Source of the DNA: Camellia lanceoleosa
Lineage: Eukaryota > Streptophyta > Magnoliopsida > Ericales > Theaceae
Reading direction: 5' to 3'
Assembly (NCBI GenBank): GCA_025200525.1
Contig: CM045767.1
Span: 3,545,437-3,609,436 of the forward strand
Length of the DNA stretch: 64,000 nt
Shown piece after piece: positions 20,343-61,800 of this stretch; the stretch's first letter is position 1; each line of letters begins with the position of its first letter. Below the pieces are notes generated by a model. The model was not told the DNA's origin. It worked only from the letters and a program-made list of their open reading frames with translations, and did no database searches. The translations under genes were made by a program, and so were the position numbers.

Positions 20343-20348
20343 ATTTTG

Positions 20349-20361
20349 TGGTATCAGAGCC
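20349..20361 (+). promoter_or_regulatory. Primer binding site, tRNA-iMet, gypsy element 3
   Basis: TGGTATCAGAGCC lies six bases after the 5' LTR. This is the canonical plant initiator tRNA-Met site. Confidence 0.85.
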
Positions 20362-20524
20362 AGGTTGTAATTTTAAAGGCTAGTATAGAATAATGGTGAG
20401 ATTGGGTAAATGTAGAACTGGAAACGCTTATAAATTGGTATAATGTTAATTTTTCTTTTTTTATGTTATAGGGACTTGAGAATAGAATAAGATGAGATTT
20501 TATTATTGATGCATATAGGTTGCA

Positions 20525-21690
20525 ATGGAACATGAGGAGACATTGGCAAATATGGCTAGGAATACACACCAAGGTCAAACGAATCGACGGACTGGTAATA
20601 ACAATCGGCGAAGGAACGTGACTAATAATGGTAGTGGTTCTCAAGCAGTCGGAGGAAATCAAGGGCAAGAGTTGGGACGACAAGAACAAGCTGCAATTCC
20701 CAATCCAATTGAAATGGTTCAAGTGCTTCAGACGTTGGCTGGGGTGGTGCAACAACAAACCACCATAGGGAATAACTTGACTAGACTTATGGAGCAACAA
20801 CAGCAGATGCAGCCAGGTGTTGGGCCACAACCAAGGCCACGTTGTAACATTACTGAGTTTAAGAAGATAACCTTGGCATTTGACGAAGCCATAGACCCTT
20901 TGGAGGCTGAAAAATGGTTGATAGAAATGGAAAAGTTGTTTCCCGTTTTTGAGTGTACGGATGATCAGAAAGTGACCTATGCTACGTTTATGCTACAAGG
21001 GATAGCTAATGATTGGTGGCAGATGGAGAAGCGCAGACACGAGCATGATGCCAACCCCTATACATGGGAAAGGTTTAAGAATGCATTCAATGAGAAATAC
21101 TTCCCTAGGAGTGTTCGTCTACAAAAACAGAGGGAATTTTTGAAGTTAGAGCAAGGGAATAAGACGGTTGCAGAATATGAAGCTGAGTTTATGAAGTTGT
21201 CTAAATTTGCATCAGCATTTGAAGCAGATGAGGATAGCAGAGCACGAAAGTTTAAAGGTGGGCTAAGAACGAACATTATGCAACAGGTGGTTCCTTTCGA
21301 GTTACCTACTTTTGGAGCAGTGTTGAATAAGGCTTTGTTGGTTGAGAGTGGCCTCACTAGAGCCCAAGAAGAGAAAGAAGAGAATTATAAAAAGAGGCCT
21401 AGTTTTTCCAACTTCCAAACTAACAGTTCGAAGGGCAATGCTAAGAGACAAAACACTTCTTCAGTTGGGAGTTGGGGAAGTCGAACTATGGGTAGTAGTG
21501 TTGATAAGAAGAATGATCGGGTATAATGCACTAGGTGTAATGGATTCCATCGGGATAGTGAGTGTCGTTGGAATACTGGGGCTTGTTTCTCTTGCGGGCA
21601 ATAGGGGCACAGGATAGCTGATTGCCCTAACCGGAAGGGGCATAAGATTGAACAGAAAACATGGACAAATAAAGGAGCATCAACAGACAA
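20525..21690 (+). pseudogene. Gypsy element 3 gag, two stops
   Basis: The 333-codon open frame starts MEHEETLANMARNTHQGQ. A Gln-rich segment (residues about 70-110) precedes the capsid region (FDEAIDPLEAEKWLIEMEKL, NEKYFPRSVRLQKQREF, VAEYEAEFMKLSKFASAF). The frame then meets a TAA at 21524 and continues through CTRCNGFHRDSEC and a zinc knuckle CFSCGQ*GHRIADC (TAG at about 21603). All Cys and His of the knuckle are retained. Apart from the two stops it is intact. Confidence 0.88.
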
Positions 21691-21748
21691 TGGGTCTTTA
21701 GGAAGTCAAAAGAAAAATGGAGGTCATAAGCCAAAGACTCAGGGTCGA

Positions 21749-24700: not shown

Positions 24701-25192
24701 CGGCACAGAGTAGACAAAAAAGTTATACAGATAATAGGAGACGTGATTTGGTGTTTGGGGTTGGAGACCATGTATTCCTTAAGGTGTCTCCTATGAAAGG
24801 AGTGATGAGGTTTGGTGTTCGTGGTAAATTGAGTCCTAGATTTGTTGGGCCATTTGAGGTTTTAGATCGAATTGGTGAGGTAGCTTACAGACTTTCCCTA
24901 CCACCTTCACTAGCTGGAGTTCATAATGTTTTTCATGTCTCAATGTTAAGGAAGTATATACCGGATCCTAGTCATGTGATCGATCATGCACCGTTGCAAT
25001 TTAAGGAGGATTTGACTTATGAGGAACACCCTATACGAATTGTTGATAGAAAGAAACAAGTTTTGAGGCGTCGAGTCGTCCACTATGTTAAGGTTCAATA
25101 AAGCAATCACTTAGAAAGAGAAGCAACTTGGGAACTCAAGGATGAAATGAAACGAAAGTATCCACAACTTTTTGAGACTTCAGGTATGTCAA
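21749..25192 (+). pseudogene. Gypsy element 3 pol (PR-RT-RH-INT-C-terminal), nearly intact
   Basis: Protease keeps a DSG triad (FDSGVTNSFV, about residues 31-40 of the 21749 frame). A TAA at 22133 separates it from the long 22151-24004 frame. Reverse transcriptase keeps [11 protein letters not shown], and RNase H keeps [40 protein letters not shown] and ADALSRK. Integrase has an HHCC finger ([15 protein letters not shown]) broken by TAG at 24002, a second TAG at 24118 and a one-base deletion near 24208. In the catalytic core the second acidic residue is Asn (SNRDSRF, AAT at 24325) and the final Glu is Lys (DGQSKRT, AAG at 24433). The C-terminal frame ends at 25099 with a last stop before the NHLEREATWELKDEMKRKYP segment. 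Confidence 0.92.
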
Positions 25193-25210
25193 ATTTCGAG
25201 GACGAAATTT

Positions 25211-25228
25211 TTTTTAAGGAGGAAATGA
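25211..25228 (+). promoter_or_regulatory. Polypurine tract of gypsy element 3
   Basis: AAGGAGGAAATGA directly precedes the 3' LTR at 25229. Confidence 0.75.
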
Positions 25229-26632
25229 TGTAAAACCCAAGTTTTGTATAATATTATTTTTGGATAAGTTAATAATTAAAATAATTGTATGGGTAATTTA
25301 GTAATCTTAAGAATTAGGTTTTCAACCCTTTAAAAAAAATAAAAAAATAAAAAGATGAGAGGCTCGTGGATGCTGCGGCTGAGGAAGGTGAAGGCAGCAA
25401 AGGTTTGAAGAAAAAAACAAAGTTAAAGAAAAGAAAACATAAACCCTTTTCCCTTTCTTTCCTCTGCTTCTTCATCATTGGTTCGATTGATTTGAGTTCT
25501 CAATAATTGAAGGCTTTAAAGTCAAACCCCTTTCAACATAATCTTTCTTTCACTGAATTCTTGGTTTTTTGGGTTTCTCCATGGTGGCAAAATTAGGGCT
25601 ATTTCAAGGTTTGTGACATTGAGGTGGATCTTGGTAATTTGAGTTTAGCTTGGAAAATATTATTTTAGCTGTTTGAGGTAAGTAACCCTCTATCACTGTT
25701 GGTTCATTTTTATTCCTACTGAATCGTTTAAAATTATAAATATTTATTTATAGCTTCCATGTTCTCTTAAAATAAAATATGGGTCAAGTATAAAACAACA
25801 TCGAATATTATTATGAAAGTTATTTGAATATTTTGTGAAACTATTTTGAAAATTGTACCAAATGTTTATTCTGAAAATATCGAATATTTTATTTTTAAGT
25901 TGTGTATTGTTTGAATTTTGAACATCACTTTAGTCTGACTATGATTTGGACCCTAGCCAATAGAGGTTATTTATTGGCACAGAAACTAGTTTCTATTGGG
26001 GCTTTACCACCAACCTATGTGTGGTTCTGGGCCTTGTCACGGGCTAAGTGACCGTAGTCATTAAGACTTGGGTTTTGTGAATCGATCATTGAACCATCTG
26101 AATATCGATCTATCAGTTTTGGATAACGAAATTTCATCGAGTTACCCCATTGACTTTTAATTAAAATGTATAGCTACACTATTTATTTTCAGCTATGAAA
26201 CCATTTTACAAATAATCGTGTCATTTATTGATTTGTATCAAAAATTATATTTATTAGTTATCGACTATTTATTTACTTCTTTTTGATATACTTGATCCAG
26301 CTGGCAGTGATGGTTGGTTATTTACTAGGTAGCTTACCCTTATTTTATTTTTCAGATTCTGAGGAGTAGAGCTGCGCGGGGTTTTTACTTGTGGGAGTGC
26401 CGAGAGTAGGAATATGATTTAAGTACTTGGATCATTATTATTATTATTTTTATTAGTGAACTTGGTGGATAATTTCATATGATAAAAATTATCTATTTGT
26501 ATGGTTTTTAGCATTATGATATTTAAGGATTTAATTTAAGCATTTTACATTGTTGGTTATGTATTGGATTCTTAGCCTTGCATGCTCACTTAACTGAGTG
26601 TGCGGCGTTGTCACGGAGCTTGGGGCGTGACA
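25229..26632 (+). repeat. 3' LTR of gypsy element 3 (1404 bp)
   Basis: It matches the 5' LTR along its whole length. It ends CGGAGCTTGGGGCGTGACA and is followed by CCCCA. Confidence 0.93.
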
Positions 26633-26910: not shown

Positions 26911-27571
26911 TTTCTTTTTTTTAAATATGCATCTATTAAAAGTTTAATAACTCAAAAATAAAAATAAAAATTTGATAATAATATATGATTGAGAAAAGAT
27001 AAAATAATAATTTTTTTACATATGAATAAATAAGTAATACAAATTGTAGGAAAAAAATTTAAATCTATTTATTTTAACTGTAAAAAAAATTCAAATAATA
27101 AATGCATTACTTAAAATAGTAAATTTTAAGTTATTTATGTAGTGTGAAATAAGTATTATGTTAAGTTATTAGGATGTTATCTAATGTTAATTTTAGAGAG
27201 ATTATTTACTTTTAAGTAATTTATCAATAAGGTTTTTTTTTTTTTTTTTACATTAAATGATTTAATAATGTCTTAACAATTTAGATATTTAGAATTTTAT
27301 TAAATAATGATAAAATATTTATGTTTTTTGATAATATATATGGTAAAATATGTATGTGTTTTTAATAATATAGATGCAAAATCTCATGAGAGATGAGTCA
27401 AATTTCTTATTTGAATAAATAAAATAATTAATGATCAATTTCATCATTTTTTGTATGACATCGATGTGACGTTAGTAAATTCTGTCAAATAATCTACCAA
27501 TAGAGAATCTTGATAATAATTTTAAAAGTAAAAAAAGTCAATATAATTATTGAAACTATATGAAAAGTCTT
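26911..27571. other. AT-rich spacer between two MULEs
   Basis: About 660 bp of AT-rich DNA with poly-A/T tracts. No frame, repeat or RNA gene is recognised. Confidence 0.5.
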
Positions 27572-27665
27572 GTAATAATAGTAAATCCATTATTTAAGAG
27601 TATTGTTCCATAAAACCCATAGTGTTTTATAATATTCCATTAGGTCCATTTCATACAGAAAGACC
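27572..27665 (+). repeat. Left terminal inverted repeat of the MULE
   Basis: It begins near GTAATAATAGTAAATCC. It pairs imperfectly with 44065-44155 on the other strand, with small gaps. Confidence 0.6.
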
Positions 27666-27699
27666 AAAACATCCCTGAACAAAACACGCGCCTTTCTCT

Positions 27700-28024
27700 C
27701 TCTCTTTGAATCTAATAACCGTCTCTCTTACCCTTTCTATTCTTGCGTAGGAAATCACGCACAGTACCTTTACAGTCCAGAAATCGAAACCCATATTCCA
27801 CATCGCCTCAACTCCCACAAAATTGTATTCCTTCCATCGTAGCATCGGCGCATCATCTCATTGATCTTCTCCGTCGTCCCTACGCCGAGAAGACTGTCTT
27901 CGTTCCATTGTCACATCGTGTGAACATCTTCTTCGTCGTTCATACGCCCGGAATACTGTATACGTTCCTTCGTCGCATCATCCCTTCGTGCCAACATCTT
28001 TTTCGTCGAAATGGGCACAAAACG
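27700..28024 (+). promoter_or_regulatory. Probable leader and first exon of the PMD-Ulp1 gene
   Basis: The sequence changes from AT-rich to pyrimidine-rich and GC-balanced, like a plant 5' leader. Two diverged copies of a ~65-bp unit lie at about 27866-27930 and 27931-27995 (CGTCGTCCCTACGCC and CGTCGTTCATACGCC with GTCTTCGTTCC/TATACGTTCC). An ATG at 28011 begins MGTK and is followed at once by a good donor (AAAC|GTAAGC). How this joins to the downstream exons is not clear. Confidence 0.35.
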
Positions 28025-28250
28025 TAAGCATTCTACTCATTCGTGTATTTAAACCCTAATCCTCTTTATCAACAACCATTATTCTGAACTTTGACAAATA
28101 TCCCCTTTTCGTATGCGTACAATATATAGAAGTCCATATTGTTCATACCCTAACATTTATTCTGAACCCCTCCATCATAATCCTTAATTTTATTGATTTT
28201 TGCAGTAAAAAACATTACAGTTGCCATTACATTGTGTTCACAACTGTGAA

Positions 28251-28708
28251 TAGGGCTGTGCAAAATACCGCCCAATCCGCTAAAACCACACCGATCCGCA
28301 TCTATCTGCACCGCTCTAACCGCTAACCGCGGTTTAAACTTTAAAATTTATAATCCGCCAACCGAACCGCTCCGCTCCGCTATAGTTAATACATATATAT
28401 TTTTTAACCTCCAATGAAATATCAATGTAAAAATGAGTGTGAGAGAGATTTAAGATATGAAATTTATTACAAATTAGTGGCTATATATATGAAACATATT
28501 ATGTAAAATTACTTTGTGTTATATATCTAAAAAATATTATACAAATTAGTGTTACGTATTATACAAATGTATGATAATTAGTTAGAATATTCTTCAATCC
28601 GCCAAAAACCGCCCAAACCGCAATTTGTCAATCCGCTAATCCGCCAACCCGCCATTCGGTTTATAAATTTACTCTCAAACCGTCCGAACCGCACCGTGCA
28701 CACCCCTA
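28251..28708. mobile_element. hAT-type MITE, 458 bp, with perfect 8-bp target duplication
   Basis: It starts TAGGGCTGTGCA and ends TGCACACCCCTA (11 of 12 inverted match). It is flanked by identical ACTGTGAA at 28243-28250 and 28709-28716. The subterminal regions are full of CCGCC/CCGC/CCAACCG words on both sides (CCGCCCAATCCGC and CCGCCAACCCGCC), typical of small hAT elements. No coding capacity. The target is a copy of the TGTGAA motif of the host MULE. Confidence 0.9.
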
Positions 28709-28994
28709 ACTGTGAACATTCCAAAATGTTTTTGTTGTAATCGTTGTTATTGCAAGATGTGAACATTCACATTGATTGAAAATGGTTTGATAATCAAATT
28801 ATTGCAGATGTTATCTGGTTGTTGTTCAATAGTGTGAACATCCACACGGTTTCAAAATGTTTTGACCAATTCTGTTTTGTTGTAGTTGATTAAAAATGTG
28901 AACATTCACATTGAGTTAAAAATGTTTGGGTAATCAGGTAGTTATGGTGTTGTTGTTTTATGATGTAAACATTCTTGTGGATTGAAAATGTTTG

Positions 28995-29520
28995 GCCAAT
29001 TCTGTTGTTGTTATTGTTAATGAAAGATGTGAACATTCACATTGCCAGCAAATTTTAGGAGAATCAAATATTATTGGTCCTTTTGTTATTGGCTGTGAAC
29101 ATTCACATTGCCTGATACTTTTAGGAGAGTCAGATATTATTGTTGCTGTTGTTCTATGCTATCAACATTCACATTGCCGGGAAAATTTAGTAGAGTCAGA
29201 TATTGTTCATGCTGTTGTTCTAGGCTGTGAACATTCACATTGCCTGAACATTTTAGTTCAATCAGATGTTGTTGGTGCGTTCGTTTTAGGCTGTGAACAT
29301 TGGCATTGCCTAAACATTTTAGGAGAGTCAAATATTATTGGTGCTGTTGTTCTAGGCTATGAACAATCACATTGCCTGCACATTTTAGTACAATCAGATA
29401 TTGTTGGTGCTTTTGGTCTAGGCTGTGAACATTCACATTGCCTGAACATTTTAGGAGATTTTAGGACAATCAGATATTATTGGTGCTGTTATTCTACACT
29501 GTGAACATTCACATGGATTG
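28995..29520 (+). repeat. 66-bp minisatellite carrying the TGTGAACATTCACA motif
   Basis: About seven to eight copies have spacing 65-67 bp between successive motif sites (about 29028, 29093, 29159, 29226, 29292, 29357, 29424). Each unit contains GG(C)TGTGAACATTCACATTGCC, a TTTTAG-(G/T)A-GA-TCA block and TATT(A/G)TTGGTGCT. Because 66 is divisible by three, an open frame runs through it with a 22-residue repeat (GCEHSHCLNIL). I regard that frame as a by-product of the repeat. Confidence 0.85.
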
Positions 29521-29736
29521 CAAACATTAGGCCAATGACTAGGGATATTTAGATTTTTTTCCCCCCTATTGTGAATGTTTGCCTTGTTCATATTCTTGAT
29601 TGTTAATGGTGATCCAATAAGTTGATCCGTCATTTTATATGTTCGTGTTAACATGCACATGTTCTTCAACAACAATGCTAGAGACCTCTAAAAACACACC
29701 TCTAAACACACCTCTAATGAAGTGGAAAAGGAAGAA

Positions 29737-29765
29737 AAAATCAAAAATCAAAAATCAAAAATTAG
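29737..29765 (+). repeat. Short (AAAAATC)n tract
   Basis: About four copies of AAAAATC stand in tandem next to the left motif cluster. Confidence 0.6.
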
Positions 29766-30662
29766 AGGTCCCAAGCATTTTTCTGTTCTTCAATAGTGTT
29801 CATGGTTGTATAAAAATACATTGTTTTCCACACAGTGACACAATATGCACATTGTGTTTGTGCTAACACAATCAACATGATGTGAATGTTCACAACCAGA
29901 CACAAACTCTGGGCATTCACACCCACTGGCTGTGAACATGCACATCGATTGGAAATCTTGTGAATGTTCACATCTGCTCCACTACGCTAATCACATGAGC
30001 GTTGACTTAATTTTTAAAATGCTCCATTTTGCGGATGTTGCACAAAAACCGCATAAAGAGAGAGATGAGTACCATGTGAAGGAAGAAACCCCAAAAACAA
30101 ATACTAGCACCAATGTGGACATAAGAAATGTGAACTGCAAATCTAATATGACCGGACAGGTCAAATTCATGAAAAGCACCAAGTTCACACAAGCGCAGCT
30201 TCGGTGCCTTCAACAAACACCTTTTTGGAATTTGCTTGATGCATTAAGAAACAATCAGATTGACCTGGACAAATGCATGAAGTATGATGACGTCGTTGTG
30301 TATGTACTACAAATATACAAAGCTTTAAAGGATGCGTTCTACATTGGGGAGAAGAAGATGAACATACACAACAGCGACATCAAACTGATTTTCGGTGTGG
30401 ACTGTGGCAGCAAGTTGATGGGCATATCGTACGGTGCGAAACCAAAGAGTGGCATTGTAAACAAAATATGCAAAAATGTCAGCCGGTTGACTTCAAAATG
30501 GTTACGCACCCTTTTGACCGAGGCGTTAAAAGGCAAAAAGAAAGCTGACAACGAAGAAGTTGCCCGACTAGTGTGCATGTATGCTTGCCAAAAGCTTTTT
30601 TTCTCAACAAGCGGAGAGACGATAGGATAGGGCTACTACACACATATGGTCCCATTGGAAAC

Positions 30663-33133
30663 TGTCACGACCCCAACCCGCCCCTATGGGTTAAGGACAT
30701 GACCGGCCAGTAATCCTATGATTACCTACAACCTCAAACCAAAACGGACATAACTCGTTAGAGAAAAGGGGCCAAACGGAAGCAAAAATTTAAAACTTTG
30801 TCCATAGAGCGGTGCTTATATGCACAAAGAACAAATCATACTCATATGCGTTAATAACCCACATCAAAAGTATAGTAGCATAAACTTCTTTACAACATGA
30901 TCATCAAACTAAGCCAACCCATATCAGACTACATACAAATGTACACAAAACCCTTGCCAATAAAACCACATGTAATTACATAACAAAATGGCAAGGACGG
31001 GTCTCGCACGTGAGACACGAGGGCTGACTCTCCAAAATCTGGGTCGTTCTACACAGGCTTCACTGAGGCTGGGTCTGGACCTCTCTTGGCTCACCTACAA
31101 AGACATGGATGAGCGTGAGCGATAGCCCAGTGAATAATATCAATTACAGAATTTATGCAACAAGACGTAAAACAACGTTTTCCAAATGGCCTTAGGCCCA
31201 ATTCATTTCTGTAGTTAACATATATAAGGGTAATTTAAATCATAGTTCCGCACACACTGGCCTTTTACTCATTCAGCTTTACATTCATTCTGAAGCTTGC
31301 CTTGACCCATTTGATTATGTCAAAAGCGGCCTTTGGCCCACTTATTCATTTCAAAACGGCCTTTAGCCCACTTATTCATTTCAAAACGGCCTTTGGCCCA
31401 CTTATTCGTTTCAAAACGGCCTTTGGCCCACTCATTTATGTGAGAACGGCCTTCGGCCCATACATTCGTATCAAAACGACCTTTGGTCCATTTATGTTCA
31501 TCAAAACGACCTTTGGTCCATTTATGTTTAACAAAACGACCTTTGGTCCATTCACGTTAACAAAACGACCTTGGGTCCATTTATGCATTCATATCTAACT
31601 TACATCCACAATCCCAATTAGCAATTTATAAAGCTTAAAAGGGAGTAAACAATTGGACATTCACAAGCATTCAAATATCGATATTACTCACAATGATCGG
31701 CTTGTGGATTTGCCCTTGAGCTTGACCCTACACATTTCACGAACACAAAAGGGTCATTAACAGTTCAATCCGTTCTTCAATTCACATATTCCTCTTTAGG
31801 CTTTATTCATATCTCATTAACTCATTTATAATGCTTAACATATGCCTAAGAGTGCTTGCAAGTGAAAGAGAGCGAACACGTAATGCAAAACAAAATTTGA
31901 AAAACAAGGTCTCGCTCGGCGTGGACTTCCGCCGGCGTGGACTTCAGCGGACCCTTAGGTCTGAAAGTTCTGGTTGCCACAAATCCACCTTTCGGCGTTA
32001 ACTCTTCGCTCGGCGGACTTCTCTACATAGCTCCCCGCTCGAGCGTCAATTTCCCCGCTCGAGCAGGCATCATGTCTGCAGAAAGTGCTGGGGGCTCGAT
32101 TTCCCTTTCGGCGTGGCGAAATTCGAAATTCGGATGGTGTTCTTGAGCTCAAATTCAATTTTCGGCTTCATCCCTTGCATGCAATGGCTCAAATCTCACA
32201 TATGATCATACTAACATGGTATAAACACCAAAACACATCATCATGGAGCCTAATTTCAAGGATTAAACACTTGCATGCTTCAAATTGACACCAACTCACT
32301 TCTATCATTCATATTTATGCATTCAAAGCTCCTATCTCCATAAATTGTACATGCATGTGATGTATCACTTTCATCTTTAGTTCATATGATGAAAAGATGG
32401 TCAAGTACATGGCTTTCAACCAAATTGCAACATAAGTCATGTGATTCAAGCTCGAATATGCCAATTCCAAACAATTATATACATGCATGCATATATGGTT
32501 TTCCAACTCAACAAAACCAATTCAAAACATGCTCTTAACCATTAATTAGCTTTGAACACACATTGAACACACAAGATTACACATTAAACTCATGGATTCA
32601 AGAATCAATGCTTACCTAGAAGCCCAATCTATGGTCAATTCTTGAACTAGACTTCAAATCTCCAAGCTTGAGTCACAAATTATACAATTCTCTCCCTCTC
32701 TCTCTAAATGGCCGGCTCTCCCTCTCTCTTCTTGAGTTACATTCAGTCCAAAATGAGGCTAAGGAGAGAGAGATTGAGTGTTTAAGGCCTTGGCAACAAA
32801 GCCCACTAACACAATATTTAATATAAAATATTTGGGCTCTTAATTCATCATTTTAATCAGTTTAAATTGACCAGAATAAATTTTCAATTAAATTTCACCG
32901 TAGGCTCTAAAAATTATGCCAATTACAATGGCGTAATCAATTTCGGGTTCTGTAGCCGATAAGGCCCTCAATTTAATTCCCGAAGGGGACTATTCAAACA
33001 GATATTCCTACGGCAAACAGATATGAATTCAAAATCACATATTATCACATAATGGCACACAAAATCATGCTAAACACATAACCATAAACAAATTAAGGAC
33101 CAGTTTAGCACAGTACAGAACAGGGGTATCACA
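30663..33133 (-). mobile_element. Solo LTR A (2471 bp) inside the PMD-Ulp1 gene
   Basis: The ends are TGTCACGACCCC and GGGGTATCACA, flanked by identical GAAAC (30658-30662 and 33134-33138). Read on the minus strand it ends GGTCGTGACA, like the gypsy 2 LTR. No primer site, polypurine tract or coding region is present, so it is a solo LTR left by LTR-LTR recombination. The reading frame of the host gene continues in phase across it if one GAAAC copy is counted. Bases shared with LTRs B and C include CCGATAAGG near the right end and TGTCACGACCC at the left. Confidence 0.88.
31318..31582 (+). repeat. ~30-bp minisatellite inside solo LTR A
   Basis: About nine copies of a unit centred on AAAACGGCCTTTGGCCCA are present, each followed by CTTATTCATTTC or variants. 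In the later copies CGGCC/GGCCC becomes CGACC/GGTCC, so the short palindrome GGCCnnnGGCC drifts in concert. Confidence 0.85.
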
Positions 33134-33247
33134 GAAACCATGCGAGAATATGATTGGGCCAAGCAAATTAGAACAACGTTGATATCGTCTATTTTCCAAA
33201 ATGACAAAAATCCAGCAAAAGTCACCGGCTGTGTCATGTTATTGATG

Positions 33248-33722
33248 GTAAGTACCCATGTTGTCAAATAATAACATTCACATGTCCTTCAGTGTTGTGC
33301 ATCTAAGCCAACTGTGAACATTCATATATGTACCACTGATGTGAATGTCCATAGGCAATTACATTTGACAGCTGTGAATGTCCACATCTGAATCACTGAT
33401 GTGAATGTTCACATTCACTCATACTATACTGCTGTGAATGTTCACAACAGTGCCACAGATGTGAATGTTCACAACTGAATCAATGTTGCGAATGTCTACA
33501 TTCACTCATATATACTACTGTGAATGTTCACAACACTGCCACTTCACTTATGTTTCACAGATATGAATGTTCACATCTGAGCCAGTGATGTGAATGTTCA
33601 CATTCACTCATAACATACTACTGTGAATGTTCACATCTGAACCAGTGCTGTGAATGTTCACATCCACTCATGACATTACTATGCAAATGCTAAATAACAC
33701 TGTGTTTGTTGTTTTACTAAAG
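33248..33722 (+). repeat. Intron of the PMD-Ulp1 gene packed with TGTGAATGTTCACA
   Basis: Between donor ATG|GTAAGT at 33248 and acceptor CTAAAG at 33722 the motif or a near form occurs about twelve times between 33300 and 33662, alternating with CT(G)/GA(T) starts and with CATTCACTCAT(A/G)ACAT between sites. Seven copies are exact by my count. Coding exons on either side lack it. Confidence 0.8.
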
Positions 33723-35632
33723 TATTGGTTGTGTGAGCACACAACCATCCTACAACCTCACAAACCCAATGCTTTTCCACGCTGTGTGAAGTGGGATCTG
33801 ACTGCTTTACAGAAGAAGATGAAAACCACCTCTTTAGCTGATTTGGGTTATAATGAGGTAGGGCCTTCAACTGCTGATCAAAACATTCACATTATAACAC
33901 CACCCAAATATATACGTTACGTAACCTGTTTTTTTCATTGTCAGGTTAATGCCGGCAAACTCTTTGCAATCCCAACAGAAATACAAAGGTTCAAGCATAA
34001 AACATTGAAGGTGGAGCCTGAAATTTATGAACCAGCCACAACATCTCCCAACCCCTTTGACATCAAGGGAGAACAACACAATGGCAGCAATTTCGAATTT
34101 TCTAGGAATGAGGTCGAGCAACAGGACAGTGATGAGGACATTCACATTCCATTTAGCAGCCAACATTATAACACAGCTATTGTAATACCAAACACAAACC
34201 AACCTGATTTGATTGACATGCTTATCAAAGAAAATCGGAAGGCCTGGGGCGTCATAAGGCAATGGGAAGCGAAGTACAACACCTTCAATTTTCATGGGAG
34301 TTAAGGGCAAGAGTCATAGCTGATCTTGAACATAAATTGTTCAACCAGTCCAGCCCACCCAACATAAATACCGAAATACAAAAGTGCATGCAGCAGAAGG
34401 ATGAAGAAATCAAACGCTTAACGCAGCTGGTCATCGACTTGGAATGCGATAAAACAATTCTTCAAGATCTTTACGATGACCAGTCAGTCCATATTGTCAC
34501 ACAGGCTTTGGCAGAAAAGCAACCCCCTAGCCCAATGCAACACAATATCAGCCCACCTTCTAGGGTCAAGCGTATAAAGGAAAAAGATCGCAAAGAACAT
34601 TGCTTGCCTGACTTCCAGTACCCAGACTTACCGGGCCAAAAGCAACCCCATCTAGTCAAAATGGTTGAAGATGTAAAGAAACACCCACCAGCGAAGCAAC
34701 CAAAAAAATTATCCTTGACCAACAAGTTCAAAGTGTGGAGCAAGATGTCCAAACAAGACAAACAAAAAGTCCAAGCTTTACAAAAAAGTGGAGGCGATGA
34801 GTAAGTGACTGTGCAAACATCTAACGTTAACATTCACATTCCGTAATTGTCTATAATCATCACTGTGTTCAATTTTCTTGGTTTGTTCAGATCTGTGCAA
34901 TGTGAATATTCACATTGGTTTGTTTATAATGCACAGGCTGCTGGTGTGGAAAGGAGATTCAAAGGCTACACATGTGTATTTTGATGACATTGTCAACCTT
35001 ATCAAGGAGGAATCAATACACAGCAATGTATGCCAGTACAAACATAATTAGCTCTTCATGCATATGCACACACAGACACAGACACACTCACAGCCACAAA
35101 TCTATATAATATGACCCCATGTTTATGCAACTCATAGATGCATATACTGAACTGTTGCATGAACAACAAGAGGTGGTCAACCCAACTTCGGATGAAGCGT
35201 CATTCATCTTCACAAGCATGTGTTTGGTAATCTATCATTCCATTATTTGTAATGTGAATGTGGAACTTCACAGTCCATTAATTATTTGTACTGTGAATGT
35301 GAAACTTCACAGTCCATTAATTATTTGTCCAATGTGTACATAAAGTGATACGAGAGTACCATCTTCGCAAAATAAGTAAACACATTGATGCACATGTCAA
35401 GAACTACCAAGGAGAGAGATACCTACTATTCCCATTGCATTATGAGTACCACTGGACGATAGTTGTGTATGATGCTAAAGACAATTTGTGGAGGCATTAC
35501 AACTCATTGCACCCAAGAACAGGAATACATGACCAGCATATCGACCAAGCACAGGAAGTTATAAGTGGCTATTTTTGAACACAAATATGACTTGTTCTCA
35601 TACATTACATGACTGTACATACACATATGTTT

Positions 35633-37990
35633 TGTCACGACCCAAACCCGGCCCTATGGGTTTAGTACCAAAGAATCGCGATGTCTGAAATTACCGAAGT
35701 CTGATTAAGCAAACTGAGTACTGGCGGAAATCGATACAGTAAACAACTAGTGTCCATTGAGCTGGGAAAATCTGTATGCCAAAAACATTTTTCATGCATT
35801 CACATAGTTCAAGACAGTACAGTCTATATACAATCTATACAGTCATATACAAACATTCAGTACGGGGACCTAATCCCTCGATAACGATGCAAGATAAAAG
35901 CAGAGCGATCTATCTGATGGTACAATACAGTAAGGAGACCGATGGGGGATACAAAAACACCCCAAGCCATAGCATGGCAACTCGGAACCTCGCAGTGAGG
36001 CACATAGGCTGGCTTGACAAAACTGGGGACCAACCCACGCTCCTAGCTCCGGTCTGGCTGCTGAGAACCTACATATATATATATAAACAGTGAGCTAAAG
36101 CCCAGTGAATAACATAATGCATAAAGAGGTTATGAATGAATGTCCTTATAATGTAGCAGTTCATTAAACAAGATATTTGATCTTTTCGAGATTTGATCAA
36201 TCACCATATGTGGTACATCCATTAGCCTATAAACAGAGGGTCCAAAAGGACCGGTCTTAACAAACCAACGGAATGATGGCCATCAATCAAGAATGATATA
36301 GTTCCACAAGGAACCGACAGAGCTCAGAATAAGATAAGCGATAAATGCTAAGGATGCCACAATGTCTGATCAAAATCTGAGGACATACATTCATTCAGTA
36401 AATAATATCAGTTCAATAAACGGTTCAGTTCAGTATTCAAAAGATAATCATTTTGAACATATCTTTACACAATTGTTACTCACAGAGATTGGGCTAATAG
36501 CAGCTAGAGCGCGTCCCTGAGAGCCAACCCTAAACAGTTAACAAATAGAACACACACTAAGTTTTACAGTCGGGAATGATGATAATTAAATCCCTAAATT
36601 TCCTCGGTGTGGTTCTATGTCTAAATACTCACTAAGATGTCTTAAACTAGGCCTAAGAATGCCTAGGATGGGATAGGGATGCAAAAATACAGTTGGAAGG
36701 CATTTTTCAAAAGTTCTTGGCAGGGGTCTCGCCGGCGAGCCTTCCTTCGGCGAGGTTGCAAAATCAAAGGCTTAGCTCGGCGAACAATCCTTCGCCGAGC
36801 GTCCGATGAAACATAAAGTATCTTGGATGCTCGATTTTACGCCGAGCCACCAATCCTTCGCCGGCGTGGCTCGGAGAAGCGTTGGTCGCTCGGCGAGAAT
36901 CCTTTGCTCGGCGAAGAAGCCAAATCTGGAATTTCCAGATTTGCCTTCCAAGCTCAAACCAAGCATTCTCAACTCAATTCTCAACCTCTTGGGCCCAAAT
37001 TCTGGAAAATACATCCCAAAACAATGTATAACAAGTTTCAAAAGCCAATTTATGGATTCAAGCCCCAAAGGTGAGTCAATTAAATCCAACATTCAACCCA
37101 TTTCAAGAACAATTTTCCAAACATGCAATGCATGAACTTTAAACCAAAGTTAAGCTTCAATTCTTGCTCAATTGAGCTCAATAGTTGGAAAACAAAATGA
37201 AAACATGGACCATAGCTTAAATATGGACATGCATGTATAATCCATCATGAATTCAACTCAAAATACACCAATTCAAGCATGCATGCATGAATTATGCTCT
37301 AATTCAACATGTATGAACTAATTCATGACTTAATTCTACAATTGGGCAAGGATCATGCAAGAAACAACATAAACTCAACATTGAGAGGTTATACTTCCTT
37401 ACCTAAGTCTTGTATTTAGGGTAGGGAGGCTTAATTGTACAAAACTCTTTCAATTCTTCAAGATTTCAAGCTAAATCAACAAGAACAATTATCTCTCTCT
37501 CTAACTCTCTTCTAATTTCGGTGGGAACAAAGGAAGGGAGCTGATGAAGTGTTTGTATAGGACTCAAGTGATGTATAAGGCTCAAACACTTGACTAGACA
37601 AAGGCCCACTCATAATGGCATGATGGTAATTTTGGCAAACTCGTTAATTGGCTTAAATTAATCTAGTTTAATCATTCCTAATAAATTTTCAGATAAATAT
37701 ACCATTAAATCACAAACATTCTACTGATCCCAAAACTCTAAACGGTTCCTAATTCGGCCACCGATAAGGTCTTCAATTAGCAGTTTAAACATATGAATTC
37801 AAACAGATAATCAATCAATCAAACAGATGCAATATGCAATTCAATAGATAACTTATTCACTTCAGTTTCGATTTCAATCAGTCCATTCAGTACTTCAGTT
37901 AATCCAATTATCAGTCATTATCAGTTCAGTTTAGCAGTAACCAGTAGCTAATTCAGTAGTTTATCGATATTCAGTACGAGGGTTGTTACA
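35633..37990 (-). mobile_element. Solo LTR B (2358 bp) inside the Ulp1 region
   Basis: The ends are TGTCACGACCCAAACCCGG and GAGGGTTGTTACA, flanked by identical TGTTT (35628-35632 and 37991-37995). It is homologous to LTRs A and C: AGCCCAGTGAATAA near the left third, GGGATGCAAAAATA followed by GGCATTTTTCAAAAG at about 36670-36712, and CACCGATAAGGTCTTCAATT near the right end. No coding region. It sits between the Ulp1 His exon and the Gln/Cys exons. Confidence 0.88.
36724..36920. repeat. CTCGGCG/CGCCGAG palindrome cluster in solo LTR B
   Basis: About ten short CG-rich words (CTCGCCGGCGAG, TTCGGCGAGG, GCTCGGCGAA, TTCGCCGAGCG, CGCCGAGCC, TTCGCCGGCG, GCTCGGCGAG) are separated by 10-25 bases with CAATCCTT between them. 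Solo LTRs A (31912-32065) and C (62220-62560) have the equivalent cluster. Confidence 0.75.
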
Positions 37991-38569
37991 TGTTTGTTGG
38001 TGCCTAATTTGAAATTCCATACACAGAGGAAGTACATTGAGCATGTTGTGAGCGTTATTGCCGAGTCATCAACCCTACACACTAAGCTAGCAGGCCAAAA
38101 TCCAGCACAACCAATCAAAAGTGTTGATGTCTGTCCTCAGCAACGCGCCGACTTGTAAGCCTCACTACATTTTTTACAAATCCTCCATAATAATTATGCA
38201 AATATTCATGTCAACTGCTAATCAAAACCATTTCTTTTTTACAGAGTAGACTGTGGACCTGCAGTATGTTACATCATGCGGGCGCACATATTCCATGAAG
38301 AAATTGTGGGCAGCCTCACTAGTTCAGAATGGTGTGGACTACGAGATTTGTTAGTGCATAGTTTTTTGAATCATAAGAAATCAGAGCTTCATTAAAACCT
38401 ATAGGTGGGGGGTGTCCACCTACAAACTAACCAAGACTCGATATGAATGTTAATATGGAATGCGTTAACATTTTGACACAACAACTGATTGTAAAACAGT
38501 GATACAACATCTGTTAATGGGAAAAAACCAGCTGGGAATTTTGAACTACTTTTGGTGTTGTTATGTTTT

Positions 38570-39370
38570 ACAGATGTGAATGTTCACATTCACTACGATA
38601 TCCATCTTCTTTGTGTTGTTATGAGTGTAATTCATGCGAATGTTTGAACCTGAGTGTTCTATAATACACATACTTTGTGCAGGAGTGTACACTTGGTCTA
38701 CATGACATAATTACGGATCACTTACACATGTGTGAACATTCACATCTGTTCTTGCTCATAACAGTTGTAAATGTCATTCATGTCTGCCATATGTGAACAT
38801 TCAATTATGACATTCATATGCACTAATATTTGCAGATGTGAATGTTCACAGTTGCAACACTGCTCTGAATGTACATAGTCACTTATGACATTCGTAATGC
38901 TGTGTTGTGATAAGCATAATTTTTGCACTAATGTCTGCCAAATGTGAACATTCACTTATGATATTCATATGCACTAATGGTTGAAAGATGTGAATGTTCA
39001 CAGTTACAACACTGATGTGAATGTTCATACTAACTTATGCTAACAGCTTATATTCATGTCAACATTGACAACAATAAGGTAAAGAAGTTCAACCCATGTG
39101 CAAGTTTTTACATAATATGATTCTTTTACGTAAATGTAAATATTCACATCATAATTTCTGATTATGTGAATGGTAACAACGATGTCATGAATATTCACAT
39201 CTTATGAGTTGATGATGTGAATGTTTACATTAATGTAAACATTCATGTCATCTACTTCGATGCTGTTAACAGTAACAACAATGTGAACATTCCCAACACA
39301 GAAATGTTTGAAAGATCAACAATGTGAACATTCAAATAATGTGATTATATTACACCAGTGTTAATGTTAA
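38570..39370. repeat. TGTGAA-NN-TTCACA cluster between the two MULE genes
   Basis: This is the spacer between the convergent PMD-Ulp1 and transposase genes. Exact copies stand near 38574, 38732, 38836 and 38988. Many near copies (38800, 38941, 39014, 39128, 39217, 39280, 39322) surround them. No coding region is seen. Confidence 0.75.
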
Positions 39371-39591
39371 CATCATGCATTCATCCAAAACACAACCAAC
39401 ATAAATGTCAGATTGGTACCTTAAAAAAGTGAAAATAAAACACAAATCAAATACTAATGCATTATTATGTTTGCCAACGCAACGTAATCTTATTGCAACC
39501 CAATGTTTGCCAACACAACACAATCTTATTTCAAAAATAAATATAAGAATCCAATGTAAAATACAATGTTGAAATTAAAAAAAGGTACATC

Positions 39592-42500
39592 CTATATCGG
39601 CTCCGTGCATGACTTCCGATTATGGCTCCCCAACTTATCACATCTCCCGCACCTTATTTGCTTCAGTTTCTCACCCCTTGATAGGATCCTATTTTTCTTC
39701 GGCCTTCCGGGTGGTCTTTTCACAGTTGGCGAGTATATAGTGAAGTCCGTGGGATCAAAAAGCGGCTTCTCCACCGATAGTATAGGGAATATGGCTCCCG
39801 AATAGGCTGCACGATATGTCTCTACATGAAAGTAATGTTCCACACAATCATTGAGATTGTAACGGCTCTTCTGAATGGCAATAACAGCATGGTCACATGG
39901 GAATCCGTTGATTTGCCATTTGAAGCAAGAACATGTACGCCTCGAAACATCAACTGTAACAGATGGTATCGAATGAACTTCAAACACATCCTCATTGGCT
40001 TTGCTAACTTGCCAAGCCCTGCTGTCATTGAACGAATCCATAAGCCTTGTTTCGAATGTCGGACAAATAAGCTCATTCCATTTGTTTGCTTGGTCACGCC
40101 TTGCAGACATTTGCCGCATCAATTGAGTACGAATTGTGTCCACCATTTGAGTGATAGGAAGATTACGTGCTTCTTTAATCCAGTTATTGAATGAATCCGC
40201 CGCATTGGATGTCATCTCCCCATAACGCATGCCCCTGCACAATATCACAAACATTGTACAATACGGAATTTAATGATTCGACCATTAACGCGTTAACAGA
40301 TGTGAACATTCATAATCGACATTAGAATACCGATGTGAACATTCACATCGTGGTATAATAATGTATTTATTTATCTGCTACCAGTTTATAATAATGTGAA
40401 TGTTCACATTATATGCTTATTATGTTGTCAACTTAAACGATGGACAATATGTGAATGTTAACAACAACAAAATATGACACATGTCAAGATTCAAATCTGT
40501 AATACATTGCACGTCTATTTGAAAACTTAACAGATGTGAACATTCACATCAGTCATCATTAGTAGATGTGAACATTCACATCATTTACATTGAACATGAA
40601 ACACAATTCGAAGATTGTTACCATTCTAAATCGAAAATTCACATCGCTACCATTCTAAAATTCACAAAGATAAACACCTTAGGAAACTATTATTACCTGA
40701 AGTATGAATTTGCCCAATGCTCAGGTGCCAAGTCCTTGAAAAAATTATGAGCTCGTTGTTTACCCTCCTCTTTTAATTTTGCAAGCTTTTCATGGAACCC
40801 TACCACAGTTGGCTCGTAGGCACAGTCACCCAAACTACTTACTAGGTGATCCCTGAATCCATTATCAATTCCTTTCATCCGGTCTCTTAAATTGCTCTTC
40901 AAGTGTTGTAAGCAATAACCGTGATGAGCCGATGGGAACACCTTTGGCATAGCTTCTAACAGACCAAGATTACGATCCGAAATAAAAGTAATATGGCGCT
41001 TCCCATCAACAACCTTCCCAAGTTCATGCAAGAACCACGACCAATTGGCCGTGGTCTCTGAATCAACAATCGCAAAGGCAACAGGAAACAGACCTACAAC
41101 ACAACACCAATACACAACTGTTCACAATATTCCAAAGTGCATAGAAAACAGTATAAACGAAACAGGTCATGTGAATGTTCATATCTACATTGCCCTATTT
41201 ACTATTGTTATTTTTGGATTCAAGTTCGTAAACATCAACGATGTGAACATTCACATTAACAACCATTAATAATTCATTGTTGATTGTTGAGTCACTGACA
41301 ATGTTAACATTCACAGGACTGTTCATTAATGGATCAACTAACATTAGTATACACTAATGTGAATATTCACATCAGTGTGTAATAATGTGAATGTTCACAT
41401 TACTGTCATTACCATACACAGATGTAAACCTTCACATCAGTGCATACTAATGTCAATCTTCACATTACTTATAATTTACCAATCACTCTTTTGTCCAGAC
41501 AATGCTGCTCAGAGTGAATATTGACATGAATAGACAGCTAAAAAAAACTACTAACCATTGTTTCCGTCTTTCGCCGTTGCCGCAAGTAGCTGACCTTTGT
41601 ACTTTCCTTTGAGGAATGTTCCATCCAGGAATAATAAAGGCCGACAAGCATTGAACCCAGAAATACACGCATCGAATGACATAAAGAAGCGACAAAACTG
41701 TTGACTACTCGCATCATAGTCAATGTTGACATGACTCCCTGGATTGTACCGCATCACAGCATCCGAATACCACCGCAGCTGGTCAAATGATAACGAGTGC
41801 TCTCCATGAATAGCAGCCTTTGCTTTCTCCACACCCAACCATACGACATGGTAACTAACATCTAGCTCATAATCCCTCTTCAAAATAGTCACCACATCAC
41901 ACAGCCGAGTCAACGGCTTGTCCCTTACAATTTCGGATATGGTACTCGACACCAAATCCGAACTAACTCGCGGATTCTTCGATGTTCGGACATCCGTACC
42001 ACAAGTATGCACGTTACTAAAACTCTTGATATAGAAAAAATCATTTGCTCGTTGTGCTCTACAATGTATAGCCCACAAGTAGCCCCTCTCCTCCCGCATC
42101 GCGCACACAGCAGTAACTCTTTTTGTCTCGTTCTTCACGTATGTAAACTGAAACCCACATTGGATGGCATACTTACACAAAACGTCACGAAATTCTTGTG
42201 CACCTCCAACAAACCGTTGTCCCACATGCGTAATACCATTTACCCAAGGGACTGACAACAACACCTTCTCCTTATGGTGGCAAAATCTCTGTAGTGCATC
42301 AACTTCTTCCTCAACCCTAACACGCACCAATCCCAAACTACTTGACTGACTAATATCACTTTTCAACTCAACCACAACTTCTACATGTTGTACCCCCATT
42401 GATTTAGCAAGCAGTAACATGTTCTGAAATTCTTCATCATTCTCCAAATCACACCTATTAATCCTAGGTAATTTACAAAACAATGAAATAGAACCAGCAG

Positions 42501-42609
42501 ACAACTCCCCCCATTTTTCACACAAACAGTCCACCAAACGCGAATAACACAATGCGTGGGCAGCATTTATTACAGTGGTACTACAACCATATGTACACAC
42601 CAACATCAT
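39592..42609 (-). CDS. MURA-type Mutator transposase, three exons, apparently intact
   Basis: The proposed exons 42609-41556, 41093-40697 and 40234-39592 join in frame at GT..AG junctions to give 698 codons (697 residues). The N-terminal half carries the MuDR-type DNA-binding region with YAIQCGFQFTYVKNETKRVT and HTCGTDVRTSKNPRVSSDLV. The MULE transposase core has LFLDGTFLKGKYKGQLLAA (about 330) and FISDRNLGLLEAMPKVFP (about 393), holding two of the catalytic Asp. Where relatives usually read AESFN this copy has AADSFNNW. A SWIM zinc finger (CSCFKWQINGFPCDHAV, about 575) and a C-terminal CCHC knuckle (CGRCDKLGSHNRKSC, about 683) follow. The protein should cut and join element ends in the nucleus. 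The start is uncertain: an acceptor-like TTTTTACAG at about 42632 suggests an upstream exon. Confidence 0.85.
40235..40696 (-). repeat. Transposase intron 2 with palindrome cluster
   Basis: The intron is 462 bp. Exact TGTGAA-NN-TTCACA copies stand near 40333, 40394, 40533 and 40564, with near copies at 40298 and 40449. Donor TTCAG|GTAATA and acceptor TGTGCAG|GGGC are read on the minus strand. Confidence 0.75.
41094..41555 (-). repeat. Transposase intron 1 with palindrome cluster
   Basis: This intron also comes out at 462 bp. Exact copies stand near 41240, 41362 and 41386, with near copies at 41170, 41300, 41420 and 41455. Donor CAATG|GTTAGT and acceptor TTGTAG|GTCTG are on the minus strand. 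Confidence 0.75.
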
Positions 42610-42739
42610 AAAGCTATCTATCTCCTGTAAAAAGAAAACAATACAACAATTAACAATAATCCAAACCGATATGAATATTCACATTGCGCGAAAATTAGAA
42701 ACATACAAGTACAGTTCAAGTGTTAAATCCATAATTCAC

Positions 42740-43570
42740 ATTAAACAAGATGTAAATATTCACACCCACACAAAAGCCTCATTAAGCAAACATTAAAGTA
42801 AAAGTGAGAACATCCACATTCTTCACATGATATGAACACGATGTAAACATTTACATTGACACATATACTCTGAATTATAGAAGATCCACATTCATCAGTA
42901 ATCTCATGACCTCCCCTCCAAAGGACCATGATGTAAACATTCACATTGATCCATATACTCTCCATTATATCACTCACACAGAACCTTCTTACGCAAAACT
43001 TAAAGTAAAATGCAAATATCGAAATTCTTCATGTAATACTAACAGGATGTAGACATTCACATTGTTCCACACACTCTGAATTAGAGAATATCCACATTCA
43101 TCACTAATCTGATGACCTCCCCTCCATAGGATCACAATGTGAACATTCACATTGATCCATATACTCTCAATTATATCACTTACACAGAGCCTCATTAAGC
43201 AAAATTTAAAGTAAAATGCAAACAACGGCATCCTTCACATAATACTAACACGATGTAAACATTCATATTGTTCCACATACTGTGAATTATAGAGGATCCA
43301 CATTCATCACAAATCTGATGACTTCCCCTCCACATGACCACGATGTAAACATTCACATTGATCCATATAATCACAATTATATCACTCAGACATAGCCTCA
43401 TTAAACAAACATCAAAGTAAAATGCAAACATCCACATTCTTCACGTAATACTAACATGATGTAAACATTCACATTGTTCAATATACTCTGAATTATATCG
43501 CTCACACAGCGCCTCATTATGCATACATCAAAGTAAAAGGAATATTATAACATTCAACATATATCTGAAT
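42740..43570. repeat. ~207-bp tandem repeat in the right subterminal region of the MULE
   Basis: The landmark CCTCATTAAGCAAACAT or a variant occurs at about 42776, 42982, 43190 and 43396, with a shorter last interval to 43512. Each unit contains two palindrome-like sites (spacing about 91 then 116 bp), GACCTCCCCTCCA and TTATATCACTCACACAG. Most sites read TGTAAACATTCACA with one mismatch to the exact palindrome, and the site at about 43136 is exact. Confidence 0.82.
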
Positions 43571-44064
43571 GACCTCCCCTCTAATGACCACGTATGATGG
43601 ATGTAATTGAAAAAACAGAGCATCCAATCCATATCAATCCAAGAACAAAGGATCTGATCCATCCTACAAATCAAAACAAAAAGTAAACATGTATTCATAA
43701 CTACAATGATACTAACCTTAATTATCCAATCCTACAGTCGTCCAAAACTCAAAAACAACTGCTACAAGGCAGTTATACTCCAGAAAATGACAGAACCGAA
43801 CACCTTCAACTTCGTCCTCTTCACTTGAAAATCGTTATACCAGACTAGAACAGCAACAATCAAACCCTAGGACATCAACGCCTCAGAACGACAGCATGCA
43901 AGGTAGAAACGTAATGATTTGAATTAGAAATATAGAAACTGCCAAAACTGAATAACGAAATCACAGAAACGTGTGTTACGTATTAACACAGTGTATATAT
44001 ATATATAAGGGCATAATAATCCGCGTACAAATATAAAATTTAAAAACTGAACTTTATGGAATAA

Positions 44065-44155
44065 GAAGAAAACTATATGAGACTCATTGGGATATAATTT
44101 TTCTTTGTGGACTTTTTGGGATAAAACATCTCTAAATGGGATTTATCAATAAATT
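44065..44155 (-). repeat. Right terminal inverted repeat of the MULE
   Basis: On the minus strand it reads AAATTTATTGATAAATCCCA from the tip. It matches the left TIR over ~80 bp with gaps and resembles the right tip of the 17168-26910 element. Confidence 0.6.
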
Positions 44156-44266
44156 TCCCTTATTAAAAACTTCAGGAGAGATACATGTAATTTAACCATT
44201 AAATTATTTTAAGGAAAAAATTTAATAACCGTTGGTGTATAGTGTCAAAATGGATAAGAAAAAGCA

Positions 44267-44340
44267 TGGCGTCGCCCGGACTTGAACCGTGGACCTTCAG
44301 TGTGTTAGACTTACGTGATAACCAACCACACCACGACACC
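44267..44340 (-). tRNA. tRNA-Val(AAC)-like gene, probably decayed
   Basis: On the minus strand 74 bases fold as a cloverleaf. The acceptor is GGTGTCG with CGACGCC and discriminator A. The D-arm is GTG..CAC with loop GGTTGG. The anticodon loop CTAACAC has anticodon AAC. The T-arm has TTCAAGT. Compared with the usual plant tRNA-Val(AAC) (from memory of the family), the fourth acceptor pair appears swapped to G-C. The conserved A14 is G, and there is one A-G mismatch in each of the anticodon and T stems. These mismatches suggest a degenerating copy. No CCA is encoded, as expected in plants. Confidence 0.7.
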
Positions 44341-44462
44341 ATCACTCTGTTGACGATTAATTAAAATTTAAAGTTCCATATATATATGTAAAGTTTCAGT
44401 GATTTCTACATATCAGGGTATCGAGATGAGAGAGAGGGAGATGCTATGCAGGTAGTGTGTGA

Positions 44463-61564: not shown

Positions 61565-61800
61565 ATTAGCCCTAGCAGAGACAGTTGGCCCATAAAGAAC
61601 AGCCATAAAGGTATACAGTTGACCCATAAAGGCATACAGTTGACCCATAAAGGGACGGCCATAAAGGCATACAGTTGACTCACGTGCATGGAGACAGTAC
61701 AGTTGGCTCATGAGACGTACAGTTGGCCCATAAATGGGACGTAATAATTCATAATAGTTGGCTCATGAGACATACAGTTGACCCATAATTGGGACGTAAC
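61565..61800 (+). repeat. Minisatellite inside solo LTR C
   Basis: About nine copies of TACAGTTG(G/A)CCCATAAA or CAGTTGGCTCATGAGAC are interspersed with GGGACG. It occupies the same relative position as the AAAACGGCCTTTGGCCCA repeat of solo LTR A but with a different unit. Confidence 0.75.

What the first reader, a model, noticed from the sequence alone, without database searches (positions are those of the whole stretch)
28700..43500. MULE-wide arrays of the palindrome TGTGAA-NN-TTCACA
By hand I count about 29 exact copies and a similar number of one- or two-mismatch copies. The copies I found are all between the MULE ends; I noticed none in the other 47 kb. A 14-mer with 12 fixed bases should be very rare by chance at this density. 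Copies lie near both ends, between genes and in introns, which suggests either a binding site spread by the element or concerted amplification. This is the strongest candidate for an undescribed system here. I know of no described MULE with such arrays, but could not search.
Basis: partly seen in the sequence, partly recalled or inferred. Interest (0 to 1): 0.9.

Follow-up and report, generated by a model that had tools for sequence, protein, structure and literature searches.

The report
Jumping gene's own anti-silencing sites
A jumping gene in what is likely a Camellia (tea-genus) genome carries dozens of copies of one short palindromic DNA word in its non-coding parts only; they are likely landing sites for a protein that the element family itself encodes, which is predicted to fold like the Arabidopsis VANC proteins and so would lift the plant's silencing of that element.

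Summary
TGTGAANNTTCACA occurs 30 times exactly in the window (shuffles: 0.03), always in non-coding DNA of one ~16.6-kb Mutator-like element: none in ~4.5 kb of exons, 5.3 kb of nested insertions or 47.4 kb outside. The 3.0-Gb own genome holds 34,402 sites against 1,215 for the reversed palindrome. All 42 loci chosen by accessory protein, not by motif (30 close; 12 of a subfamily 50-58% identical), carry 7-19 exact copies, partly in different repeat units.

The parts
27556..44159 (.). Mutator-like element with degenerate ends, including three nested insertions (5,287 bp)
   Evidence: Both ends are homologous to the ends of a complete 2.67-kb element on contig C1 (window 27582-27669 and 44000-44164); flanking TTATTGAAA / TTATTAAAA match at 8 of 9. 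The left end is uncertain by some tens of bases.
28711..29972 (.). Motif cluster 1 (intron 1 of the accessory gene): 16 sites with up to 2 mismatches, 9 exact; 66-bp unit
33313..33662 (.). Motif cluster 2 (intron 2): 11 sites, 7 exact; spacing 27/33
34825..35311 (.). Motif cluster 3 (introns 4 and 6): 4 sites, 2 exact; a 39-bp duplication; conserved among 30 relatives
38575..39372 (.). Motif cluster 4 (between the convergent 3' ends of the two genes): 15 sites, 4 exact
40301..40580 (.). Motif cluster 5 (second intron of MURA): 7 sites, 4 exact
41170..41526 (.). Motif cluster 6 (first intron of MURA): 8 sites, 3 exact
42670..43473 (.). Motif cluster 7 (upstream of the MURA coding sequence): 10 sites, 1 exact; 206-bp unit with two sites each
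39592..42624 (-). MURA transposase, exons 42624-41556, 41093-40697, 40234-39592; open reading frame of 702 residues
   Evidence: DBD_Tnp_Mut, MULE and SWIM domains above Pfam cut-offs; 92.9% identical to P0001 over 678 residues
28011..38393 (+). Accessory gene (PMD/DUF1985-like + Ulp1-like), exons about 28011-28023, 30035-30662 with 33134-33247 (one exon, split by a solo LTR), 33723-33856, 33945-34800, 34937-35027, 35136-35225, 35342-35560, 38027-38154, 38245-38393; broken by an in-frame stop at 30628-30630, the solo LTR and a frame change near 34300; the exon 1-2 junction is uncertain
   Evidence: pieces 82-86% identical to intact homolog P0179
28251..28708 (.). Nested hAT-like MITE, target duplication ACTGTGAA; no motif inside
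30663..33133 (+). Nested solo LTR 1 in an exon of the accessory gene, target duplication GAAAC; no motif inside
   Evidence: absent from relative L035
35633..37990 (+). Nested solo LTR 2 in intron 7, target duplication TGTTT; no motif inside

Best explanation
The arrays are likely the target sites of the element family's own VANC-type anti-silencing protein, whose N-terminal module is predicted to share the fold of Arabidopsis VANC21 on its target DNA. Shown: the motif lies only in non-coding element DNA in the window, it is in all 42 protein-selected family loci examined, its single copies are conserved on average, arrays are gained and lost, and transposase and accessory gene sit together. 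Predicted: the VANC21 fold and a long helical (coiled-coil-like) stretch, from models of homologs. Inferred: a dimer held by that stretch reads the two half-sites of RATGTGAAYRTTCACATY; many sites side by side raise local occupancy; binding removes DNA methylation and other silent marks over the element, so its genes are transcribed; non-coding passenger elements with the same sites are opened in trans. The Ulp1-like domain would act on SUMO or a similar tag in that step, but all 21 checked relatives have Asn where Ulp1 has its catalytic Asp (recalled), so its activity is open. In this copy the accessory gene is broken, so this copy would depend on intact relatives.
Confidence: 0.82

Rival explanations
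1. The sites are bound by the MURA transposase for transposition, like the reiterated subterminal sites of other plant DNA transposons (recalled).
For: MURA has a DNA-binding domain (DBD_Tnp_Mut) and is intact here; the motif also fills a non-coding element that must use a foreign transposase.
Against: The outermost ~0.7 kb of native DNA on each side has no copy with at most one mismatch; clusters sit in internal introns; the VANC21-like fold belongs to the accessory protein.
Confidence: 0.06
2. The accessory protein binds the sites but acts as an ordinary transcription activator or as an insulator; loss of silencing is a by-product or does not occur.
For: Nothing here measures methylation; clusters lie in introns and upstream of MURA, where enhancers could act.
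Against: Sites also fill the stretch between the two convergent gene ends and a non-coding element; for VANC21 the authors argue that removal of silent marks, not activation, is primary (PMC5735166).
Confidence: 0.07
3. The arrays are neutral: tandem duplication and gene conversion multiplied one chance word, with no binding.
For: Several clusters are plain tandem repeats, and inside single arrays the motif is not clearly better conserved than the rest.
Against: Clusters share the 18-bp motif and nothing else (0 masked hits); subfamily 2 has the same word in other units such as 40-41 bp, with four marginal masked hits to one 31-bp stretch; single copies outside arrays are on average more conserved than intron and exon sequence; exons and nested insertions are clean.
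Confidence: 0.03
4. The sites are host transcription-factor sites, for example heat-shock elements that make the MULE stress-responsive.
For: The core GAANNTTC is a two-unit heat-shock-like core (recalled).
Against: 0 three-unit heat-shock elements of either form in the element's non-coding DNA; the outer TGT and ACA are both present at 30 of 44 GAANNTTC sites there; the distribution is not promoter-like.
Confidence: 0.02

Closest known systems
VANDAL21 (Hiun) and VANC21, also VANDAL6 and VANC6, Arabidopsis (PMC5735166, parts 1-3 of 6 read; PMC10398659, part 1 of 6 and passages)
   Same: Mutator-like element with degenerate ends; transposase plus a fast-evolving accessory protein; short motifs in tandem repeats in introns, intergenic and terminal non-coding DNA; arrays gained and lost between copies; predicted N-terminal fold
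   Different: Targets there are YAGTATTAY (VANC21) and AGTTGTCC or AGTTGTAC (VANC6), not palindromes, and they differ between related families; VANC is described with DUF1985 and DUF287, here PMD/DUF1985-like plus Ulp1-like; here the target is the same in two diverged subfamilies
KIU-carrying VANDALs: VANC genes with an Ulp1 domain (review PMC13317346, passages only; primary paper Sasaki et al. 2022, EMBO J, not held)
   Same: VANC-type N-terminal module and C-terminal Ulp1 domain in one protein; motifs in non-coding DNA of their own kind; described as conserved in eudicots
   Different: Whether any of their targets is palindromic could not be checked; Ulp1-like domain here has Asn at the Asp position in 21 of 21 proteins with the pattern
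MULE groups with PMD accessory genes (PMC6446971, passages only: VANDAL group 'PMD and/or DUF in half the members'; PMD also in rice and Solanaceae groups)
   Same: Transposase plus PMD accessory gene, in places antisense to it
   Different: No motif arrays mentioned in the passages seen ('tandem' and 'subterminal' occur 0 times in that paper)
MAIN and MAIL1, host plant mobile domain proteins (PMC7156037 and PMC9899485, passages only)
   Same: PMD protein linked to a short DNA motif and to transposon control
   Different: Host proteins that promote silencing; their 'DOWN' motif CATGCAGTTT is unlike this one

Membership tests
VANC-type anti-silencing system (VANDAL group) | Mutator-like transposase with an accessory gene in the same element, with weak or degenerate terminal repeats | tested here: met
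   MURA and accessory gene in the window, and in L035 and L036; the two window ends align to each other no better than shuffles
VANC-type anti-silencing system (VANDAL group) | Accessory protein with the VANC fold | tested here: met
VANC-type anti-silencing system (VANDAL group) | DUF1985 by sequence | tested here: inconclusive
   Relatives P0198, P0207, P0204, P0195 match DUF1985 over the PMD region at E 7e-7 to 0.017, below the cut-off; P0179 and P0181 match PMD only
VANC-type anti-silencing system (VANDAL group) | Short motif repeated in tandem arrays in non-coding parts of its own elements and rare elsewhere | tested here: met
VANC-type anti-silencing system (VANDAL group) | Arrays gained and lost between copies; accessory protein evolves faster than the transposase | tested here: met
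VANC-type anti-silencing system (VANDAL group) | Motifs within a region in the same orientation (read from the asymmetric centre) | tested here: inconclusive
   Clusters 1, 2 and 7 are mostly one way (14 CA to 2 TG; 10 TG to 1 CA; 8 CA to 2 TA), clusters 4 and 6 mixed; around the accessory exon 29 of 30 relatives share the majority orientation, L005 not
VANC-type anti-silencing system (VANDAL group) | Target differs between related subfamilies (a reported tendency, not a defining feature) | tested here: not met
   12 of 12 subfamily-2 loci carry the same palindrome
VANC-type anti-silencing system (VANDAL group) | Protein binds the motif and causes loss of methylation | not testable with these tools
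   Needs gel shift or DAP-seq, and bisulfite sequencing
KIU-type VANC (with Ulp1 domain) | C-terminal Ulp1-like domain | tested here: met
   PF02902 26.7 bits, cut-off 20.7, in the window's spliced C-terminal piece; SENP and Ulp1 chains by profile and by fold
Heat-shock element | At least three alternating GAA units | tested here: not met
   0 of either three-unit form in the element's non-coding DNA

The most novel reading that the evidence does not exclude
A dyad-reading branch of VANC: coiled-coil dimers of PMD-type VANC-Ulp1 proteins read one palindromic address that stayed fixed while the proteins diverged to 50-58% identity and many arrays were rebuilt from other repeat units. It is now a shared anti-silencing code of about 34,000 sites in one genome that opens several subfamilies and their non-coding passengers together, the opposite of the one-family-one-motif arms race reported in Arabidopsis.
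Probability: 0.4. Interest if true: 0.8.

Novelty: new member of a known kind. Interest (0 to 1): 0.64.

Why it matters
VANC systems are sequence-specific erasers of silent chromatin made by selfish DNA, and possible tools for epigenome editing. This case puts motif-array evidence into Camellia (Ericales), gives a defined, palindromic, easily assayed target together with intact homologs, and shows a target kept between diverged proteins. The very many natural arrays make it directly testable whether array density sets methylation, with public tea methylomes and small RNAs. Tea plant mobile domain genes are a reported source of phased siRNAs (175 PHAS loci; PMC10673657, passages seen), so the host side of the conflict may be visible too.

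Tried and rejected
Heat-shock factor sites: rejected. Helical phasing of sites (recalled from the abstract of Sasaki et al. 2022, not seen here): none in the window, though a C1 passenger element has many pairs 20 bp apart. Better conservation of the motif inside single arrays: not shown. Aligning the window's two ends to each other: no better than shuffles (30 of 200 reach the score); the ends were found through the C1 relative instead. The 'DOWN' motif of MAIN/MAIL1 is unlike the palindrome. The letters TGTGAACATTCACA occur in 0 papers of the held library. The Foldseek search with the 811-residue model showed no VANC21 among its 50 listed rows, which the Ulp1-like part fills at the top; VANC21 appeared in the VIA second look and as Foldseek rank 1 with the shorter model. 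VANC21 was not found by sequence in the PDB. L001-L004 and L037 were brought in or chosen because they hold the motif and are not counted as tests of its presence. In the alignment L010 and L018 were dropped as the same places as L035 and L036.

Full report
WHAT WAS CHECKED. TGTGAANNTTCACA occurs 30 times exactly in the window, at 28758-43151, against 0.03 in shuffles; with two mismatches allowed, 75 times against 7.2. I read gene models from the sequence. Against these, 30 of 30 exact and 53 of 53 sites with at most one mismatch lie in non-coding DNA of one Mutator-like element; none lies in ~4.5 kb of exons, 5,287 bp of three nested insertions or 47,444 bp outside. The nested insertions are a built-in control: two of the three lie between clusters, and all three are clean.

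THE ELEMENT. It spans about 27556-44159. Its ends were recognised because a 2.67-kb element on contig C1 of the same genome has homologous ends; that copy has a perfect 9-bp flanking repeat, ATAAAAAAA, in A-rich DNA where near-matches are common, and the window's candidate repeat matches at 8 of 9. On the minus strand lies an open MURA transposase in three exons (DBD_Tnp_Mut, MULE, SWIM). On the plus strand lies an accessory gene of about nine exons, PMD/DUF1985-like at the N-terminus and Ulp1-like at the C-terminus. In this copy it is broken by an in-frame stop, a solo LTR in the second exon and a frame change near 34300. Exact sites lie in introns 1, 2, 4 and 6 of that gene, between the two genes, in both MURA introns and upstream of MURA, that is in 8 of 14 non-coding compartments; the other six, including both outer ends, have no site with at most one mismatch.

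THE MOTIF. The half-sites are 2 bp apart in 30 pairs; the only other pairs in a scan of 0-15 are two at spacer 8. The centre is CA, TG or TA in 29 of 30 exact sites, so the word is a near-palindrome with a pyrimidine-purine centre; in the window the consensus extends to RATGTGAAYRTTCACATY, and in relatives to about AGATGTGAACATTCACATCAGT. The seven clusters use different units (66, about 60, 39 and 206 bp, or none) and share only the motif: masking it drops hits between clusters from 127 to 0. CpG is depleted in most clusters (observed/expected 0.08-0.47, one 0.80; five exon stretches 0.44-0.88; flanks 0.49-0.62).

THE GENOME. The window is G000:C10:3545437-3609436 of a 3.0-Gb assembly. The motif occurs 34,402 times; the control, the pattern read backwards and also a palindrome, 1,215 times. 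Of the 50 sites listed in that answer, 45 fall into six clusters of three or more. The host is very probably a Camellia by protein matches, perhaps C. lanceoleosa: contig C6 has 209,741,645 bases, the contig length listed for protein P0201 of that species. That rests on one number.

COPIES CHOSEN BY PROTEIN. With P0179 (subfamily 1), 30 of 30 loci have 7-16 exact sites: 335 in 117.6 kb, 324 of them outside tblastn-coding stretches, control 0; the other 11 lie in tblastn matches that may run into introns. With P0181 (subfamily 2; 50-58% identical to the window's pieces), 12 of 12 loci have 8-19 exact sites: 152 in 47.6 kb, 0 in 28.7 kb of coding DNA, control 0. In the one subfamily-2 locus examined for units (L045) they are 40-41 bp. 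Motif-masked window arrays leave four marginal hits in subfamily 2, all of one 31-bp stretch. These loci are the best-scoring ones (52 of 7,816 and 56 of 7,243 candidates were scored), so they favour well-kept copies.

CONSTRAINT AND DYNAMICS. Across 30 aligned relatives the four sites in introns 4 and 6 have mean diversity 0.035, the rest of introns 4-6 0.081 and the exon parts 0.049; two sites are lower than all 178 intron windows, two are not exceptional (55 and 18 of 178 windows as low). A 39-bp unit with one site is present in 18 and absent in 12 of the 30. Two near-complete relatives, L035 and L036, have 40 and 41 exact sites (60 and 63 with at most one mismatch, 0 and 2 of them in tblastn-coding stretches) and an 8-site array in intron 7 that the window lacks; both lack the solo LTRs and the MITE. 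Gene models of other Camellia copies hold peptides that look like read-through of array sites (P0153, P0127, P0146, P0142, P0148: 5 of the 102 accessory-protein hits P0121-P0222), P0153 with a 9-residue insertion at the 38575 site.

RATES. In Rhododendron simsii the tags Rhsim02G0220500 (P0207, accessory) and Rhsim02G0220600 (P0049, transposase) are likewise close, so the two-gene design probably reaches another family of Ericales.

HOW IT LIKELY WORKS. Established elsewhere: VANC21 binds YAGTATTAY in tandem repeats in non-coding parts of VANDAL21 and causes loss of methylation over the element (PMC5735166, parts 1-3 of 6); RNA-directed methylation acts on the same regions (PMC10398659, part 1 of 6). 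By analogy the accessory protein would bind the palindrome as a dimer and lift silencing. Dimerisation, binding and demethylation are inferred. The C1 element, in which twelve family proteins found no coding match, with 22 sites (8 exact), would be a passenger opened in trans.

SAME AND DIFFERENT. It works like, and by predicted fold, gene content and target layout belongs with, VANC-type systems; by the Ulp1-like domain it resembles the KIU-carrying VANDALs described in a review (PMC13317346, passages). It differs from VANC21 and VANC6 in its palindromic target and in keeping that target across diverged accessory proteins. Since the primary paper on VANC diversity in eudicots is not held, I file it as a new member of a known kind. 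Literature searches behind the novelty statement.

Noticed in passing
window 18934-26632: A long terminal repeat retrotransposon: two direct copies, 18934-20342 and 25229-26632, 97.1% identical.
   Followed up: no
window 44266-44341: A tRNA-Val (anticodon AAC) gene on the minus strand about 100 bp beyond the right end of the MULE.
   Followed up: no
window 28251-28708: The nested hAT-like MITE landed inside what looks like a copy of the motif: its 8-bp target duplication is ACTGTGAA and CATTCC follows.
   Followed up: partly
window 60924-63569: Another stretch that starts with TGTCACGACC and ends with GGTTGTTACA, like solo LTR 2 in the MULE; possibly a third LTR of that kind.
   Followed up: no
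L001/L004, contig C1:859055-861722: A 2.67-kb element without matches to the twelve family proteins tried, its ends homologous to the window's MULE, with TA-centred sites in many pairs 20 bp apart.
   Followed up: partly
L037, contig C1:2768500-2775000: A diverged relative (N-terminal matches of 45-49%) that also carries the palindrome, 9 exact copies; it was chosen for the motif.
   Followed up: partly
P0133, P0184 (homeobox); P0174, P0191 (sulfotransferase); P0168 (CRAL-TRIO): Database proteins that join accessory-gene parts to unrelated domains; annotation fusions or gene capture.
   Followed up: no
P0198, P0203, P0206, P0207, P0208, P0210 and others (Rhododendron): Repeated peptide stretches in these accessory proteins, as reported for variable regions of VANC proteins (PMC5735166).
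   Followed up: no
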